Positions 12,112 to 59,072 of a stretch of 64,000 nt of DNA are shown one piece after another. The DNA is from Actinomycetospora corticicola (GTDB taxonomy: Bacteria; Actinomycetota; Actinomycetes; Mycobacteriales; Pseudonocardiaceae), in the NCBI RefSeq assembly GCF_013409505.1, contig NZ_JACCBN010000001.1:1116001-1180000 (forward strand), read 5' to 3'. Position numbers and translations under genes: made by a program. How positions within the stretch are numbered: the stretch's first letter is position 1; every line of letters starts with the position of its first letter. The notes under the pieces were generated by a model. It searched no databases. It was given only the letters and a program-made list of their open reading frames with translations, and was not told the DNA's origin.

Positions 12112-12134
12112 GTGAGCAGAAAAGGTCGCGATAG
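12112..12134 (+). repeat. Left half of a family-1 palindrome split by IS element A
   Basis: The 17-bp arm GTGAGCAGAAAAGGTCG (12112-12128) and the six-base loop CGATAG (12129-12134). The matching right half is at 13816-13840. Joining the halves with one loop copy restores a perfect palindrome almost identical to the intact one at 52293-52332. Confidence 0.85.
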
Positions 12135-12173
12135 AGCCTGTCGGCTTTTATAGACCGGCGCCAGCGCCTCTGA

Positions 12174-13670
12174 TTGGATCTTGGGGTGGCTCGTGACTTC
12201 CGTCCGGTGGATCGTGACACCGGGTTCCTGCTGCCCCCGGATGTGCGGGACTGGCTGCCCGAGGGGCATCTGGCCTGGACGGTGATCGACGCGGTCGAGA
12301 TGTTGGATCTGACCGCGTTGATCTCCACCTACCGGCTGGGGGGTCGCGGCCGGCGGGCCTACGACCCGGCGATGATGCTCACGTTGTTGATCTACGCGTA
12401 TGCGGTGGGTCTGACGTCCTCACGCGGGATCGAACGCGCCTGCGGCCACGACGTGGCGTTCCGGGTGATCACCGCCAACCAGGTCCCTGATCACGACACC
12501 ATCGCCGCGTTCCGGGTCCGGCACCGCGAGGTGTTCAAGGACCTGTTCATCGAGGTCCTCAAGGTCTGCGCGGCCGCGGGGCTGGGGCGGGTCGGGACGA
12601 TCTCGGTCGATGGCAGCAAGATCGCCGCGAACGCCTCGTCGCGGCGCAACCGCACCGCGGCGGGGATCGCCAAAGCCCAGGCCGAACTGGGTGAGCCGGA
12701 GCCCAGTGGCGCGGAGCTGGGTGGCCCGGATCTGGGTGACCCGGAGCCCGATGACCAGGGTCTGGCGGGGGTGGTCGAGGACCGCCTGGAACGGGCCGAG
12801 TCCAGCGACGCCGCCGAGGACGCCGAGCACGGGCCGGGACGACGGGGCGACGAGCCGCCCGAGGACATGAACGACCCGACCGCGCGGCGGGCCCGGCTGG
12901 CCCGGGCCGCGGCGAAGGTCGCCGAGCAGAACGCCGCCCGGGCGGCGGAAGCGGCCGCCCAGCAGCAACGCTACGAGACCAAGCTCGCGGCCCGGAACGC
13001 CCACCACGCCACCCACGGGCGCTTCCCGAAAGGCCGGCCCCCGAAGGCACCGGCCACCCCGACCGAGAGCACCCCGGCCGGGGACAAGCCGGTGCGGGCG
13101 AACACCACCGACCCCGACTCCCGGCCGTTGCGGACCGCGCAGGGGTTCCTGCAGGGCTTCAACTCCCAGGCCGTGGTCGGCGACGACCAGGTCGTGATCG
13201 CGGTCGAGGTCGTCGAGCAGGCCAACGACGCCGGTCTGCTCGCCCCGATGACCGCCGCCGCGCTGGACAACCTCGCCCGCGCCGGGATCGACGCCCCGGT
13301 CGAGACCGTGCTCGCTGACACCGGCTACTTCACCGCCGGAGACATCACCGCCCTCGATGACGTCCACCAGCAGGGGCGGGGTCCCCGACCGCTGGTCCCG
13401 CCCACACGTGATGCGCTGCGCGACCCCGAGCAGCAACAACCACCCCGGCAGGAGTCGCGGGTGCGCCGCGGGATGCGCGAACGGCTCGCCGAGCCCGAGG
13501 CGCGCGAGCGCTACCGACGTCGCAAAGTCACCGTCGAACCGGTCTTCGGGCAGATCAAGAACCGGATCGCCGACCGGTTCCGGGTTCGGGGTCTCGTCGC
13601 GGTCCGCGCCGAGCTCACCCTGATCGCCACCGCCCACAACCTGCTCAAGCTCCACACCGCAACCACCTGA
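12174..13670 (+). CDS. IS1182-family transposase (element A)
   Basis: A 498-residue DDE transposase. The N-terminal domain has FRPVDRDTGFLLPPDVRDWL and AYDPAMMLTLLIYAYAVG (DUF772-like). Catalytic candidates are Asp in SVDGSKIAANAS, Asp in VLADTGYFT and Glu in VEPVFGQIKNR. A charged, low-complexity insert (about 165-300) separates the first and second. The reading frame is intact. A TTG at 12174 or GTG at 12186 is the probable start. It resembles the transposase of element B throughout but differs in many residues, so the two elements are different isoforms and not recent copies of each other. Confidence 0.9.
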   Translation: MDLGVARDFRPVDRDTGFLLPPDVRDWLPEGHLAWTVIDAVEMLDLTALISTYRLGGRGRRAYDPAMMLTLLIYAYAVGLTSSRGIERACGHDVAFRVITANQVPDHDTIAAFRVRHREVFKDLFIEVLKVCAAAGLGRVGTISVDGSKIAANASSRRNRTAAGIAKAQAELGEPEPSGAELGGPDLGDPEPDDQGLAGVVEDRLERAESSDAAEDAEHGPGRRGDEPPEDMNDPTARRARLARAAAKVAEQNAARAAEAAAQQQRYETKLAARNAHHATHGRFPKGRPPKAPATPTESTPAGDKPVRANTTDPDSRPLRTAQGFLQGFNSQAVVGDDQVVIAVEVVEQANDAGLLAPMTAAALDNLARAGIDAPVETVLADTGYFTAGDITALDDVHQQGRGPRPLVPPTRDALRDPEQQQPPRQESRVRRGMRERLAEPEARERYRRRKVTVEPVFGQIKNRIADRFRVRGLVAVRAELTLIATAHNLLKLHTATT

Positions 13671-13682
13671 GAAGCGGGCCAC

Positions 13683-13699
13683 GGCGCCCTCCGGGCGCC
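13683..13699. terminator. Hairpin after transposase A
   Basis: GGCGCCC and GGGCGCC arms (7 bp) with a TCC loop, 12 bp after the transposase stop. A counterpart follows the transposase in element B (24063-24091). It probably ends transposase transcription. Confidence 0.55.
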
Positions 13700-13710
13700 G
13701 CAGCCCGCCC

Positions 13711-13764
13711 TCAGGAACCCGCCGTCAGGAACCCGCCGTCAGGAACTCGCCGTCAGGAACCCGG
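13711..13764. repeat. 14-bp tandem repeats inside IS element A
   Basis: Nearly four copies of TCAGGAACCCGCCG in direct tandem (starting at 13711, 13725, 13739 and 13753), with one C-to-T change in copy 3. They lie between the transposase hairpin and the right terminal repeat. Element B has only one related unit (reverse complement near 24035). They may be subterminal transposase binding sites. Confidence 0.65.
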
Positions 13765-13815
13765 AATCAGCGACTGACTCCGAGCACCCACCGGACTTAC
13801 AAAGTCCGACAGGCT

Positions 13816-13840
13816 CGATAGCGACCTTTTCTGCTCACCT
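13816..13840 (+). repeat. Right half of the family-1 palindrome split by IS element A
   Basis: The duplicated loop CGATAG (13816-13821) is followed by the arm CGACCTTTTCTGCTCAC and CT. On the minus strand the arm's AGGTGAGCAG contains the TGA stop codon (13837-13835) of the transketolase-like gene. Confidence 0.85.
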
Positions 13841-16254: not shown

Positions 16255-17952
16255 ATGAGTGATCCGCAGCGTGCCGTGCGCGAGCTGGCCGACGACCACG
16301 TCCGCCGCCTCGCCGCCCTCGACCCGATCCTGGCCGGCGATCTCGGGTGGAACGACCACCTCGACGAGCTCCCCGACCTCTCGCCCGACGGCATCGCCGC
16401 CGGCGACGACGTCCGTCGGGACACCCTCGCGCGGCTCGCGGCGCTGCCGGAGCCGACCGACGCCGACGAGCGGCGGTGCGCGCGCCTGCTCGTCGAGCGG
16501 CTCTCCGCCGAGCTCGACCACAGCGCCACCGGCGAGCCGCTGCGCGCGGTCCAGGAGCTGTTCGGTCCGCCCGCGGGGCTGCGGGGCGCGTTCACGATGA
16601 TGCCGACGGCGACCGAGGACGACTGGGCGGTGGTCGCCCGCCGGTCCGCGCGGATGCCGGCCGCGTTGGAGGGCTACCGGCGCTCGCTCGAGGAGGGCCG
16701 ACGGCAGGGTCTGTTCGCGGCGCCGCGGCAGGTGCGGCGGGTGGCGGCCCAGCTCCGGGCCTGGCTCGACGACGACGGCGGGCGCGGCTGGTTCTCGGCC
16801 TTCGCGCGCGACGCCGAGGTCGGACCCGCCGTCCGGACGGAGCTCGACCGGGGCGCCGCAGCGGCGGCGACGGGCCTCGCCGGGCTGCGGGACTGGCTGC
16901 TCACCGAGTACCTCCCGGCGGCCGAGGGGACTCCGGACGGGGTGGGGGCCGAGCGCTACCGCGTGGCGAGCCGCTACTGGAACGGCGCCGATCTCGACGT
17001 CGACGAGGTGTACGCGTGGGGCTGGTCCGAGTTCCGCCGGCTGCGCGACGAGATGGCGGTCGAGGCCGACCGCGTGCTCCCCGGGGCCGACGCCGCGACC
17101 GCGATGGCCCACCTGGACACCGCGGGCGAGGTGCTCGTCGGCGGCGAGGCCACCGTGGCGCGCCTGCAGGAGCTGATGGACGCGACGATCGCCGCGCTGG
17201 ACGGGACGCAGTTCGACCTGTCGGGGCCGATCCGCACGGTGGAGGCCCGCCTGGCGCCGGTCGGGAGCGCCGCGGCGCCGTACTACACGCCGCCGTCGAT
17301 GGACTTCGCGCGCCCGGGACGGACGTGGCTCCCGGCGTCGTCCGACGACCGCTACCCGACGTGGGGGCTGTACTCGACCTGGTACCACGAGGGGGTCCCG
17401 GGCCACCACCTGCAGCTCGCTTCGTGGCCGCTGCACGCCGAGCGGCTGTCGCTGTTCCAGACCTCGGTGGTCGGGATGGTGAGCGCGAACGTCGAGGGCT
17501 GGGCGCTCTACGCGGAACGGCTCATGGACGAGCTCGGGTTCCACACCGACCCGGGCTCGCGGCTGGGCTACCTCGACGCGCAGATGCTGCGGGCGATCCG
17601 CGTGATCATCGACCTCGGGATGCACCTGTCGCTCCCGATCCCGGACGACGCACCGGTCGGCGCGGGGGAGCGGTGGACCCCGGAGCTGGCCCGGGAGTTC
17701 TTCGGACGGCACAGCGGGCGGAGCGCGGAGATGCTCGACTCCGAGCTCATCCGCTACCTGGGCGGGCCGGGCCAGGCGATCGGCTACAAGCTCGGCGAGC
17801 GGGCCTGGCTGGCGGGCCGCGACGCGGCGCAGCGGCGTGCCGGCGCGGACTTCGATCTCCGCGCGTGGCACGCCGCCGCGTTGGCCCAGGGGTCGCTGGG
17901 GCTGGACGACCTGGTGCGAGAACTCGCAGGTGAGCACTCAGGGGGCCTATAG
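16255..17952 (+). CDS. DUF885 family protein (probable metallopeptidase-like)
   Basis: A 565-residue protein. It has the family motif YHEGVPGHHLQLA (about 380), which carries the putative zinc-ligand histidines, and upstream a conserved TPPSMDFARPGRTWL. Later parts include EGWALYAERLMDELG, YLDAQMLRAIRVIIDLG and PGQAIGYKLGE, all standard for DUF885. These bacterial proteins are thought to be zinc peptidases, but substrates are mostly unknown. There is no signal peptide, so it is cytoplasmic. It is divergent from the E1-like gene with about 55 bp between starts. The last residues (GEHSGGL) and the TAG stop are encoded by the palindrome at 17928-17971, so the C terminus may have been altered by the repeat. 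Confidence 0.85.
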   Translation: MSDPQRAVRELADDHVRRLAALDPILAGDLGWNDHLDELPDLSPDGIAAGDDVRRDTLARLAALPEPTDADERRCARLLVERLSAELDHSATGEPLRAVQELFGPPAGLRGAFTMMPTATEDDWAVVARRSARMPAALEGYRRSLEEGRRQGLFAAPRQVRRVAAQLRAWLDDDGGRGWFSAFARDAEVGPAVRTELDRGAAAAATGLAGLRDWLLTEYLPAAEGTPDGVGAERYRVASRYWNGADLDVDEVYAWGWSEFRRLRDEMAVEADRVLPGADAATAMAHLDTAGEVLVGGEATVARLQELMDATIAALDGTQFDLSGPIRTVEARLAPVGSAAAPYYTPPSMDFARPGRTWLPASSDDRYPTWGLYSTWYHEGVPGHHLQLASWPLHAERLSLFQTSVVGMVSANVEGWALYAERLMDELGFHTDPGSRLGYLDAQMLRAIRVIIDLGMHLSLPIPDDAPVGAGERWTPELAREFFGRHSGRSAEMLDSELIRYLGGPGQAIGYKLGERAWLAGRDAAQRRAGADFDLRAWHAAALAQGSLGLDDLVRELAGEHSGGL

Positions 17953-17971
17953 GCCCCCGTAGTGCTCACCT
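17928..17971. repeat. Family-1 palindrome (GGGGGCCTATAGGCCCCC core)
   Basis: Outer arms AGGTGAGCACT and AGTGCTCACCT and an inner GGGGGCCTATAGGCCCCC core. It lies between two convergent genes and overlaps the DUF885 stop codon. It is a likely bidirectional terminator as well as a member of the dispersed family. Confidence 0.8.
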
Positions 17972-23964: not shown

Positions 23965-23990
23965 CCCGTGAGTACTTTTCCGTGCCGGGG
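23965..23990 (+). repeat. Left half of a palindrome split by IS element B
   Basis: The 20-bp arm 23965-23984 starts CCCGTGAGTACTTTT and is followed by CCGGGG. The partner arm lies at 25590-25609. The arms pair with one mismatch. The stem sequence differs from families 1 and 2, so this is a fourth palindrome type, seen only here. Confidence 0.75.
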
Positions 23991-24062
23991 AGCCTGTCGA
24001 ACTTTGTAGTTCGATGACTGCCCCGCGGTAGGTGATTCCTGACGGCGGGTTGCTGATGGCGG

Positions 24063-24091
24063 GGTGGCGGCGCCCGGAGGGCGCCGCCACC
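24063..24091. terminator. Perfect hairpin after transposase B
   Basis: Two 13-bp arms (GGTGGCGGCGCCC and its complement) with a 3-base loop, 8 bp beyond the transposase stop on the minus strand. A strong intrinsic hairpin without an obvious T tract, as is usual in actinomycetes. Confidence 0.7.
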
Positions 24092-24098
24092 CAGCGGT

Positions 24099-25544
24099 TC
24101 AGGGGCTGGCGACGTGGAGTTTGAGCAGGTTGTGGGTCATCGCGATCAGCTTGAACTCGGCGTTGACCGCGGCCAGTCCGCGGAGCCGGAACCGGTCGCC
24201 GGTGCGTTGCTTGATCTGCCCGAAGACGGGTTCGATGATCCCGGAGCGGCGCTGGTAGTGGGCGCGTCGGTCGGGTTCGCGGAGCCGTTCACGCATGCGC
24301 CGGGCGCGGGTGGACTGGCGTTGCGGGTCGTGCCCGCCGGGCTCGGGTCGCAGCGCCGCCCGGTCGGGCGGCACCACCGGCTCCGGGCCGAGACCTCGGT
24401 CGTGGGCGGTGTCCATCTCGGTGATGGCGGTGGTGTTCCAGTAGCCGGCGTCGGCGAGCACGGTGTGCGGGACCTCGAGCCCGAGCAGCCGCAGCATGAT
24501 CAGCGCGGCGCGGGTCATCGGCGCGAGCTGCTGGGTGTCGTTGGTGTCGGTGACGACCTCGGCGTCCAGGATGACCTGGTCCTCGCTGGCCACGACCTGG
24601 GTGTTGTAGCCCTGCACGAAGCCCTGGCGGGTCGCCATCACCACCGAGTCCGGGTCGGTGGTGTTCGCCCGGCCCGGCTTGCGGTCGGGATCGGGAGCGG
24701 CCGGTGGCTTCGGGGGCCGCCCGCGCGGGTTGCGGCCGTGTTCGGCCCGGTAGGCCTCCCGCGCCGCGACCTTCTGCTCGTAGCGGGCCTGCGCCCCCTG
24801 CTGCTGGGCGGCTTCGGCCGCCTCGCGGGCCGCGATCCGCGCCGCGGCCGCCGCGAACCGGGACCGCTGCCCCGACCGGTCCCGCATCCCCGGCGGCGGT
24901 TCGTCGCCGCGATCGGAGCCGAACTCGGCATCCTCGGCCGCGTCGGTCGCCTCCGCGCGCCGCAGCTGCTCGGCGACCACCGCCGCGTCACCCCCAGCCC
25001 CAGGGGCGGTCTCGGCGTCAGGGGCGGTCTCGGCGTCGAGCGCGGCCTTGATGCCGGCGGCGGTGCGGTTGGCCCCGGAGGAGGCGTTGGCGCGCATCTT
25101 GGTGCCGTCGAGGGCGATGGTGCCGACCTTGACCAGCCCCGCTTCCCGACACAGCCGCAGGACCTGGACGAACAGGTCCGCGAAGGTGTCCCGGTGCCGG
25201 ACCCGGAACCCGGCGATGCTGCTGTGATCCGGTGCGTCCCCGGCGGCGATCACCCGGAACGCCACGTCGTGCTCGCAGCGGGCCTCGATGCGGCGCGACG
25301 AGGACTCCCCGACCGCATAGGCGTAGATCAACAGCGCCAGCATCATCGCCGGGTCGTAGGCCCGCCGGCCCCGCCCACCGAGCCGGTAGGACCCGGTCAA
25401 CGCGCTGAGGTCCAGCGCGTCGACCGCGTCGAGCACCGTCCATGCCAGATGGCCTTCCGGAAGCCAGTCCCGCATGTCCGGGGGCAGCAAGAACCCGGTG
25501 TCACGATCGACCGGACGGAACCCACGAGCCACCACAAGATCCAA
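24099..25544 (-). CDS. IS1182-family transposase (element B)
   Basis: A 481-residue intact DDE transposase. N-terminal motifs are FRPVDRDTGFLLPPDMRDWL and AYDPAMMLALLIYAYAVG. Catalytic candidates are Asp in ALDGTKMRANAS, Asp in VLADAGYWN and Glu in IEPVFGQIKQR. Its closest relative in the window is element A's transposase, with which it shares the N terminus and C terminus closely but not the charged insert (about 165-285). No frameshift is seen, so the element may still be active. The opposite-strand open frame that runs out into the quinone reductase is a shadow. Confidence 0.9.
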   Translation of the reverse strand: MDLVVARGFRPVDRDTGFLLPPDMRDWLPEGHLAWTVLDAVDALDLSALTGSYRLGGRGRRAYDPAMMLALLIYAYAVGESSSRRIEARCEHDVAFRVIAAGDAPDHSSIAGFRVRHRDTFADLFVQVLRLCREAGLVKVGTIALDGTKMRANASSGANRTAAGIKAALDAETAPDAETAPGAGGDAAVVAEQLRRAEATDAAEDAEFGSDRGDEPPPGMRDRSGQRSRFAAAAARIAAREAAEAAQQQGAQARYEQKVAAREAYRAEHGRNPRGRPPKPPAAPDPDRKPGRANTTDPDSVVMATRQGFVQGYNTQVVASEDQVILDAEVVTDTNDTQQLAPMTRAALIMLRLLGLEVPHTVLADAGYWNTTAITEMDTAHDRGLGPEPVVPPDRAALRPEPGGHDPQRQSTRARRMRERLREPDRRAHYQRRSGIIEPVFGQIKQRTGDRFRLRGLAAVNAEFKLIAMTHNLLKLHVASP

Positions 25545-25583
25545 TCAGGACCGGTGGCAGCCGTCTACAAAATCCGACAGCCT

Positions 25584-25609
25584 CCGGGACACGGGAAAGT
25601 ACTCACGGG
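25584..25609 (+). repeat. Right half of the palindrome split by IS element B
   Basis: CCGGGA (25584-25589) followed by the arm beginning CACGGGAAAGTACTCAC (25590-25609). It abuts the promoter-like motif of the next gene directly. Confidence 0.75.
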
Positions 25610-52292: not shown

Positions 52293-52332
52293 GTGAGCAG
52301 AAAAGGTCGTGATAGCGACCGTTTCTGCTCAC
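52293..52332. repeat. Family-1 palindrome (intact twin of the IS-A target)
   Basis: GTGAGCAGAAAAGGTCG, loop TGATAG and CGACCGTTTCTGCTCAC. It lies between convergent relA and tetR. Its TGA (minus strand, 52331-52329) is the tetR stop codon. The stem differs from the IS-A target by one base, so it shows what that locus looked like before insertion. Confidence 0.88.
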
Positions 52333-56533: not shown

Positions 56534-57317
56534 CTACCAGCAGCTGCTGTTCGAACGCCGCGACCACGGCGTCCTGCTCATCACGATCAACAACCCGGAG
56601 AAGTACAACGCCACCGACGAGGTGCTCCACGGCGAGCTCGCCCGGGTGTGGCGGGACGTCGACGCGGACGCGGACGTGCGGGTCGCGGTGGTGACGGGCG
56701 CCGGGAAGGCGTTCTCCGCCGGGGGCGACCTCGCGATGGTCGAGCGGATGACGGGGGACCACGCGCGGGTCTCGCACATGCTCAAGGAGATGTCGCAGCT
56801 CGTCTACAACATCATCGACTGCGAGAAGCCGGTCGTCTCGGCCATCAACGGGGTCGCCGTCGGGGCCGGTGTGGTGGTGGCGCTGCTCGCGGACGTCGCG
56901 ATCGCCGCCGAGGACGCGAAGCTCGGCGACGGCCACGTCAAGCTCGGCGTCTCCGCGGGCGACCACGCCGCGATCATCTGGCCACTCCTGGCCGGCATGG
57001 CGAAGGCGCGCTACTACCTGCTGACCGGCGAGATGGTGACCGGGGCCGAGGCCGAGAAGCTGGGCATGGTGGCGAAGGCGCTGCCGCGCGACCAGGTGCT
57101 CGACGAGGCGCTGCGGGTCGCGGACGTGCTGGCGACCGGGTCGCAGCAGGCGATCCGGCTGACGAAGAAGTCGCTGAACAACTGGCTGCGGGCCATGGGA
57201 CCGACCTTCGACCAGTCCGCCGCCTACGAGATGCTCTGCTTCCTCGGCCCGGACGTGCCCGAGGGTGTGGCGGCGTTGCGGGAGAAGCGTGCGCCCGTGT
57301 GGCCTTCGGCCAGGTGA
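56520..57317 (+). CDS. Enoyl-CoA hydratase/isomerase family protein (BadK-like)
   Basis: A 265-residue crotonase. [20 protein letters not shown] leads to the oxyanion-hole segments [14 protein letters not shown] and [39 protein letters not shown] includes the second active-site loop, with Asp where many have Glu. It should hydrate the product of the dehydrogenase. It is the last gene of the operon. The last residues (APVWPSAR) run into the palindrome and the TGA stop is that of its AGGTGAGCAG. Confidence 0.9.
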
Positions 57318-57355
57318 GCAGAAAGTGGGGTCATAGGCCCACTTTCTGCTCACCT
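57312..57355. repeat. Family-1 palindrome after the enoyl-CoA hydratase gene
   Basis: AGGTGAGCAGAAAGTGGG, loop GTCATAG, and the complementary arm ending CTGCTCACCT. Upstream GTGGCCTTCGGCC is shared with the copies at 58686 and 59011. The first TGA in the left arm ends the hydratase gene, and the right arm abuts the promoter-like motif of the next gene. Confidence 0.88.
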
Positions 57356-58671: not shown

Positions 58672-58743
58672 TGTGGCCTCCGGCCAGGTGAGCAGAAAGT
58701 GGGCCTATAGGCCCACTTTCTGCTCACCTGGGCGAAGCCCACA
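58672..58743. repeat. Family-1 palindrome with accessory side hairpins
   Basis: The core 58686-58729 is perfect: AGGTGAGCAGAAAGTGGGCC, loop TATA, then the complement. It is flanked by two small hairpins (GGCCTCCGGCC on the left, GGGCGAAGCCC on the right) and an outer TGTGG/CCACA pairing. The whole unit could form a cruciform. The TAG in its loop ends the minus-strand gene at 58705. Confidence 0.88.
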
Positions 58744-58968: not shown

Positions 58969-59010
58969 GAGCGGAGCGTAGAGCGGATCAGGCCCGCGTG
59001 GCCTCCGGCC

Positions 59011-59054
59011 AGGTGAGCAGTAAGTGGGGCTATCGGCCCACTTACTGCTCACCT
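59011..59054. repeat. Family-1 palindrome before the AI-2E transporter stop
   Basis: AGGTGAGCAGTAAGTGGGG, loop CTATC, and the complementary arm ending CTGCTCACCT, with the same GTGGCCTCCGGCC left flank and GGGCGGAGCCC right flank as the copy 325 bp away. The A-to-T change in AGTAAG is matched in the opposite arm, so pairing is maintained. Confidence 0.88.
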
Positions 59055-59072
59055 GGGCGGAGCCCACACGGA

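What the first reader, a model, noticed from the sequence alone, without database searches (positions are those of the whole stretch)
12112..13840. IS1182-type element A inserted exactly in the loop of a family-1 palindrome
Seen directly: arm GTGAGCAGAAAAGGTCG, loop CGATAG, element, loop CGATAG, complementary arm. The direct repeat is the entire six-base loop, and removing the element restores a perfect 17-bp-stem palindrome. An intact near-twin is at 52293-52332. This suggests the transposase recognises a hairpin or cruciform.
Basis: seen in the sequence. Interest (0 to 1): 0.8.

Follow-up and report, generated by a model that had tools for sequence, protein, structure and literature searches.

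The report
IS1182 transposon inserting at hairpin tips
A small bacterial jumping gene repeatedly lands at the exact centre of hairpin-forming palindromes, and some relatives do the same in unrelated palindromes, which suggests that it finds its target by DNA symmetry or shape rather than by a fixed sequence.

Summary
An IS1182-family element (12134-13816) splits a 40-bp palindrome at its dyad centre. The duplication is best read as 4 bp (GATA): both lengths fit in the four A copies, but 4 of 11 repeat-bearing copies (one B, three in relatives) exclude six. All 8 copies in this genome (types A and B) sit at the centre of such palindromes; 7 of 8 have matching 4-bp repeats, one is a hybrid. The genome has 157 uninterrupted GTGAG-N30-CTCAC palindromes (reversed control 0). 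Congeners without the element have intact palindromes at the orthologous sites of both window copies; at the B site one has the loop CGGG once where this genome has it twice. Copies in five other lineages (four measured: 43-46% identity) also sit on the axis of palindromes of other sequences: 15 of 15 copies in seven lineages, against 0 of 19 scored copies of other IS1182 lineages. A lineage within the same tree clade does not use palindromes. So targeting follows dyad symmetry; extruded hairpin or symmetric duplex stays open. IS1272 (same family) is already known to target stem-loops, but with deletion and no duplication.

The parts
12112..12129 (.). left arm (18 bp) of the split 40-bp palindrome
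   Evidence: joined empty site
12130..12133 (.). left copy of the 4-bp target duplication GATA (hairpin loop of the empty site)
12134..13816 (+). IS1182-family element, copy A, 1683 bp, terminal repeats GAGCCTGTCGG/CCGACAGGCTC
12174..13670 (+). transposase gene, 498 aa (TTG start), IS1182 family model NF033551 276.6 bits (cut-off 270)
13817..13820 (.). right copy of the 4-bp duplication GATA
13821..13838 (.). right arm (18 bp) of the split palindrome
   Evidence: orthologous intact palindromes in G002, G013, G008
23968..23989 (.). left arm and CGGG duplication of the palindrome split by element copy B
23990..25584 (-). IS1182-family element, copy B (71% DNA identity to A, 61% protein), 1595 bp
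25585..25606 (.). CGGG duplication and right arm of the palindrome split by copy B; G013 has the uninterrupted site with CGGG once, inner 22 bp 21/22 identical
17930..17969 (.). intact 40-bp palindrome of the target family
52293..52332 (.). intact 40-bp palindrome, near-twin of the target of copy A; orthologue in G008
57314..57353 (.). intact 40-bp palindrome of the target family
58688..58727 (.). intact 40-bp palindrome of the target family
59013..59052 (.). intact 40-bp palindrome of the target family

Best explanation
This is an IS1182-family insertion sequence whose transposase picks the dyad centre of long palindromes and inserts there with a 4-bp staggered cut, so the four central bases end up on both sides. 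In this genome the palindromes are a dispersed, REP-like family with an 18-bp stem, a 4-nt loop and 40 bp in all, so the duplicated bases are the hairpin loop. Shown by sequence: the exact central position, the 4-bp duplication, the empty orthologous sites, and the same central position in unrelated palindromes used by relatives. Inferred: that the feature read by the transposase is two-fold symmetry or a hairpin, not a base sequence, with the two halves of a symmetric transposase-end complex placed across the axis. Not shown: that the DNA is extruded as a hairpin or cruciform when it is cut.
For: 8 of 8 copies of two element types (61% protein identity) lie at the exact centre of palindromes of three arm subfamilies. 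Orthologous empty sites: 12.1-kb site intact in G002, G013, G008 (both flanks aligned) and G017 (one flank); 24-kb site intact in G002, G013, G017; G013 carries CGGG once where G000 carries it on both sides, inner 22 bp 21/22 identical. The element was found in 1 of 18 genus genomes, this one, at E <= 1e-40. Relatives in unrelated palindromes: G024 (L084), Phytohabitans flavus (L082), G146 (L107, L110, L112; two different palindromes), G150 (L106), G240 (L127). Dyad score p <= 0.0013 in 14 of 15 copies, 0.008 in the hybrid L006, against 20,000 random real positions. Fold axis offset 0.0 in 14 of 15, 0.5 nt in one; the looser criterion (centre in a hairpin loop, >=10 enclosing pairs, axis within 1 nt) is met by 15 of 15, by 1 of 19 other copies (L092) and by 198 of 3000 random positions. 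No shared arm sequence is visible between lineages (by eye).
Against: Within this genome every target starts GTGAG, so sequence recognition cannot be excluded from these 8 alone. A lineage inside the same 12-row tree clade (L087, L088, L089) does not use palindromes (dyad p 0.80, 0.058, 0.80), and 0 of 19 scored copies of other IS1182 lineages have p < 0.05, so it is not a family-wide property. 4 of 15 copies have no matching repeat: L006 is a hybrid of two palindromes; L112, L106 and L127 lack one for unknown reasons. The clade support is modest (83/80), and the tree needs 4 label changes with undetermined rows (L128, L130) counted as non-palindromic. Long palindromes are not rare (13 found in 264 kb of this genome, window included, and 7 in 200 kb of G146), so lineages with a single copy carry less weight than G000 and G146.
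Confidence: 0.75

Rival explanations
1. Sequence-specific targeting: each transposase lineage reads the bases of one local palindromic repeat family as double-stranded DNA, and central insertion only reflects a dimer bound to a symmetric sequence.
For: All 8 copies here are in GTGAG...CTCAC repeats. Two copies of a lineage in the same clade (L087, L089) use a non-palindromic site, the same codon boundary of IS256-type transposase genes. Insertions of other families into REP sequences are known, ISRm22 at the palindromy axis (passages of PMC1525189).
Against: A and B together occupy three arm subfamilies; G146 copies use two unrelated palindromes; four other lineages use yet others with no common motif visible by eye.
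Confidence: 0.2
2. Cutting at the stem-loop junctions of an extruded cruciform, so that exactly the loop is duplicated (pathway c of the model of Wan et al. 2017).
For: For 4-nt loops the duplication equals the loop. The model in PMC5678879 (first part of the Discussion read) draws loop-only duplication as one possible outcome.
Against: In L107 and L110 the loop is 8 nt (AAACGAAA) but only the central ACGA is duplicated, so the cut keeps a 4-bp stagger about the axis rather than following the junction. These two copies share one palindrome sequence, so this is one kind of target.
Confidence: 0.2
3. IS1272-like stem-loop replacement: the hairpin tip is removed on insertion and no duplication is made.
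For: L112, L106 and L127 sit on the axis of a palindrome without a repeat. IS1272 behaves so (PMC4923244 passages; PMC5678879 sections).
Against: 11 of 15 copies have the 4-bp repeat, and an orthologous empty site shows nothing lost at the B site of the window.
Confidence: 0.05
4. Random insertion with survival only in harmless intergenic hairpins.
For: Most of the sites look intergenic by a crude gene call, although in L003, L008, L107, L110 and L112 an open frame comes within 2 bp of the insertion edge.
Against: Selection for intergenic sites cannot place every copy on the exact axis.
Confidence: 0.02

Closest known systems
IS1272 / TnSha1 (IS1182 family), Staphylococcus
   Same: Same transposase family; most reported targets are inverted repeats able to form stem-loops, with no sequence in common (PMC5678879: abstract, sections 22-24 and first part of the Discussion read; PMC4923244: passages).
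   Different: IS1272 is reported to replace or delete the stem-loop with no target duplication, and 3 of 13 older copies in that paper had non-inverted-repeat targets. Here the whole palindrome is kept and its 4 central bases are duplicated in 11 of 15 copies.
ISRm22 (IS4 family) in Sinorhizobium meliloti REP elements
   Same: All copies in REP palindromes, insertion at the palindromy axis with a short direct repeat, and three imperfect copies explained by recombination (PMC1525189 passages).
   Different: Another transposase family, 6-bp repeat, REP sequences of one genome; the passages seen give no use of unrelated palindromes.
IS1397 / ISKpn1 (IS3 family) and IS621 (IS110 family)
   Same: Insertion into repeated extragenic palindromes (named in PMC1525189 passages).
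   Different: Other families; described there as selective for REP sequences.
CTAG-duplicating IS1182 relatives (e.g. ISAzo1, ISMno38)
   Same: Same family, 4-bp duplication.
   Different: The duplicated CTAG is itself a 4-bp palindrome, but the flanks show no larger dyad (0 of 9 scored with p < 0.05).
REP sequences (GTAG/CGTC-tagged)
   Same: Short palindromic repeats in high copy number (abstract start of PMC3733652 in the listing).
   Different: The target family here has 40-bp length and GTGAG/CTCAC ends inside the stem. The text of PMC3733652 has no hit for GTGAG, Pseudonocardia or actinobacteri. An associated REP transposase was not looked for.

Membership tests
IS1182 family | transposase scores above the IS1182 family model cut-off | tested here: met
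   NF033551 276.6 bits, cut-off 270; all 8 copies over cut-off when stretches in one frame are summed, 274.1-292.4
IS1182 family | DDE catalytic residues | tested here: met
   D146, D382 and E455 are invariant in alignments of 4 and 6 sequences; their assignment as the triad is mine. Pfam DDE_Tnp_1 and DDE_Tnp_1_6 hits
IS1182 family | single transposase gene between short terminal inverted repeats | tested here: met
   498-aa ORF; ends GAGCCTGTCGG/CCGACAGGCTC
IS1272-type stem-loop-replacing elements | target is an inverted repeat without sequence consensus | tested here: met
   across lineages; within this genome all targets share GTGAG ends
IS1272-type stem-loop-replacing elements | no target duplication and loss of the stem-loop | tested here: not met
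   4-bp repeat in 11 of 15 copies and arms kept; 3 copies (L112, L106, L127) and the hybrid L006 lack a repeat
REP sequences (for the target palindrome) | repeated intergenic palindrome of 20-40 bp | tested here: met
   157 copies of 40 bp. By a crude gene of 20 sampled lie between ORFs or overlap only part of an ORF end; in L037 and L040 the called 5' end of an ORF runs across the palindrome
REP sequences (for the target palindrome) | associated REP tyrosine transposase (RAYT) | not tested

The most novel reading that the evidence does not exclude
A clade of DDE transposases that reads DNA shape: it recognises an extruded hairpin pair (or bare two-fold symmetry) of any sequence and cuts 2 bp to either side of the axis. 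Its host belongs to a genus that carries a family of 40-bp hairpins whose interiors are exchanged at fixed loci while ends, length and flanks stay, so the element lives on an ever-changing sequence that only a shape reader could keep using.
Probability: 0.4. Interest if true: 0.75.

Novelty: new variant of a known kind. Interest (0 to 1): 0.55.

Why it matters
Many DDE insertion sequences choose targets loosely or by sequence (general knowledge). A lineage that keeps landing on the axis of unrelated palindromes gives a natural test of whether a transposase can read DNA structure, and it supplies the case with target duplication that IS1272 lacks. It would also point to intergenic hairpins as landing places that do little harm (inference).

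Tried and rejected
Rejected: the six-base target duplication as a rule (absent in 4 of the 11 copies with a 4-bp repeat; it does fit 7 of 11, the four A copies included); 'repeat equals whole loop' as a rule (G146 loop 8 nt, repeat 4); element ends that include the palindrome arms (arms differ between copies, and orthologous empty sites exist); the palindromes as simple convergent-gene terminators (crude gene calls put 20 sampled palindromes in convergent 4, tandem 10 and divergent 6 settings); all IS1182 elements targeting palindromes (0 of 19 scored copies outside the palindrome-using lineages with p < 0.05).

Sampling: one search found 1027 plasmid records and listed 60; I fetched 20 of them, picked for spread of genera and leaving out clinical isolates, plus one more place; 16 of the 20 could be scored. 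Of 3 loci, 2 were scored.

Left undetermined and not in the counts: L081, L086, L091, L100, L102, L109, L128, L130 (ends incomplete, not found or not scored); L167 (hybrid flanks); viral contigs L168 (CTAG repeat, not scored), L169, L170, L171. Further plasmid searches with L082, L107 and L084 proteins gave no new records, only one further copy in a known record, L167. A phage search gave one distant hit, not fetched. A search in the genus of G024 gave only the known copy. No structure prediction was run.

Full report
What was checked. The sequence at 12112-13838 shows an 18-bp arm, GATA, an IS1182-family element of 1683 bp, GATA, and the complementary arm. In the four A copies 4 and 6 bp fit equally; over the 11 copies with a 4-bp repeat, 7 also have the 6-bp one and 4 (L008, L082, L107, L110) do not, so 4 bp is the common reading. 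The transposase (498 aa, TTG start) passes the NCBIfam IS1182 model (276.6 bits, cut-off 270) and has the Pfam DUF772 and DDE domains.

All copies found in the genome. A DNA search of the 6.17-Mb genome gave 8 copies: four of type A (95-100% identical) and four of type B (71%); a protein search and a family search gave the same eight. All eight split a palindrome GTGAG...CTCAC exactly at its centre. Repeats: GATA, TATA, TATA, TATA (A) and TATC, TGGA, CGGG (B; the last is CCCG in element orientation). The eighth, L006, has one arm from a TATA palindrome and one from a TATC palindrome and no matching repeat; a recombination product between two copies is the likely reason (inference; the same reading is given for three ISRm22 copies in PMC1525189, passages).

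The target family. The pattern GTGAG-N30-CTCAC occurs 157 times uninterrupted in this genome and 0 times when read backwards, and 65-218 times in each of the 18 genus genomes searched (G000 included), with 0-4 control matches. In 76 listed palindromes (of 157), 59 have at least 15 of 18 stem pairs. The inner 13 pairs average 10.62 Watson-Crick pairs, against 7.42 (maximum 8.11 of 500) when right halves are dealt out anew. The GTGAG...CTCAC palindromes found in the window (5) and in four 60-kb stretches of congeners (11) are all exactly 40 bp long although lengths of 20-59 were allowed.

Empty sites. The element was found in 1 of 18 genus genomes, this one, at E <= 1e-40. At the 12.1-kb site G002, G013 and G008 have an intact 40-bp palindrome with both flanks aligned to the window, and G017 with one flank. 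At the 24-kb site, where copy B sits (23990-25584), G002, G013 and G017 have an intact palindrome. The G013 allele reads CGGG once where this genome has CGGG on both sides, and its inner 22 bp match the joined G000 site at 21 of 22 positions. This is the direct evidence that the insertion duplicated the 4 central bases and removed nothing there. At the 12.1-kb site the congeners' arms differ from ours, so that site shows the position but not the letters.

Relatives. Identity to A is 45, 45, 46 and 43% for L082, L084, L107 and L106; L127 was not measured. Their sites: L084 in GGATGAAGGGCGCCTTCAT..., L082 in GTCCGTGGCGAGAAA..., L107 and L110 in GCGAYTTGTGAGTGA..., L112 in GATTTCGGTGCGCTA..., L106 in GATGATCTTGGAYTTG..., L127 in GAAGTGNGTGCCGC.... 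A dyad score of the flanks was compared with 20,000 random real positions: 14 of 15 copies of these five lineages and of A and B have p <= 0.0013, L006 has 0.008; of 19 other scored IS1182 copies none has p < 0.05 (lowest 0.058). With DNA folding parameters the hairpin axis coincides with the insertion centre (offset 0.0) in 14 of 15 and is 0.5 nt away in L084. The looser criterion was met by 15 of these 15, by 1 of the 19 others (L092, weak fold, -7.8 kcal/mol) and by 198 of 3000 random positions. The 19 others are a hand-picked sample: 16 come from 20 fetched of 1027 plasmid records, 3.

Limits of the pattern. A maximum-likelihood tree of 29 transposases puts all seven palindrome-using rows in one 12-row clade (support 83/80); the same clade holds L128 and L130 (sites undetermined) and the plasmid elements L087-L089, which do not use palindromes. 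The tree needs 4 changes of the label, 3 forced by well-supported branches, with undetermined rows counted as non-users. The scored copies of more distant relatives (Proteobacteria, Alicyclobacillus, Thermaerobacter, Halococcus, Streptomyces, Solirubrobacterales and others) do not show it; several duplicate CTAG. So the trait seems to belong to a lineage, not to the family.

Mechanism. In the lineages with 4-nt loops the duplication is the loop; in G146 (L107, L110) the loop is 8 nt and only the central ACGA is duplicated. That favours a fixed 4-bp stagger about the dyad axis over cutting at stem-loop junctions (inference). Wan et al. 2017 (PMC5678879; abstract, sections 22-24 and the first part of the Discussion read, plus passages) drew three outcomes for attack on a cruciform; their pathway c, duplication of the loop only, is close to what is seen here, while they propose replacement without duplication for IS1272 itself. 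Furi et al. 2016 (PMC4923244, passages) report stem-loop targeting with deletion and no duplication for IS1272 and TnSha1, and cite Siguier et al. 2015 (not read) for palindrome targeting by some IS1182 members. Hairpin extrusion against symmetric duplex cannot be decided from sequence.

Novelty. Targeting of palindromes by IS1182 members is in print for IS1272. Eight literature searches showed, in the titles and abstract starts listed (lists cut at 12-20 papers, most papers not opened), none on actinobacterial IS1182 elements with loop or axis duplication; most subscription papers are not in that library. I file it as a new variant: axis insertion with a 4-bp duplication, across unrelated palindromes.

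Side finding. At four orthologous loci in the window region, pairs of congeners keep the 40-bp length, 14-18 of the 18 outer bases and 300-bp flanks 72-96% identical, while the inner 22 bp agree at only 6-14 of 22 positions in 17 of 19 pairs; the two exceptions are 21 and 18 of 22. Stem pairing stays at 16-18 of 18. The interior of these hairpins seems to be exchanged in place.

Noticed in passing
12112-13838, 17930-17969, 23968-25606, 52293-52332 and orthologues in L172-L183: The 40-bp palindromes keep length, ends and position between congeners while their inner 22 bp are replaced by another complementary pair of arms (6-14 of 22 identical in 17 of 19 pairs; flanks 72-96%). This looks like in-place exchange or concerted evolution of hairpin interiors.
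   Followed up: partly
L087 2934-2938/4679, L089 2939-2943/4677, L088, L167: A lineage on Rhodococcus and Pseudarthrobacter plasmids inserts in IS256-type transposase genes (PF00872): L087 and L089 at the same codon boundary after EFVPFL(Q/D) (model positions 323|324). L167 is flanked by inverted pieces of such genes by eye, and L088 sits near a similar stretch by eye, neither confirmed (the L088 translation was in another frame).
   Followed up: partly
L093, L094, L095, L096, L098, L101, L103, L168: More distant IS1182 relatives carry CTAG on both sides as the 4-bp duplication, next to ends such as GAGCCCGTC or CAGCCTGTC.
   Followed up: no
L006 (G000 4778549-4780119): Copy B flanked by halves of two different palindromes and no matching repeat, probably the product of recombination between two copies.
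   Followed up: no
L001-L004 against L005-L008: Type A copies differ in length (1653-1720 bp; open frames 488-515 aa), while the four type B copies are all 1595 bp with the same protein score, which suggests recent spread of B. Short repeats in the A gene and 3' end may be the cause (by eye).
   Followed up: no
window 58678-58737, 58999-59066 and L035, L041: Some 40-bp palindromes have further complementary flanks (about 10-16 bp, with some mismatches), so the repeated unit may be larger than 40 bp.
   Followed up: no
L041, L042, L043, L044, window 57314: In several cases the crude gene call ends a gene at the TGA inside the palindrome's first bases (gTGAg), so the repeat seems to supply stop codons.
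   Followed up: no
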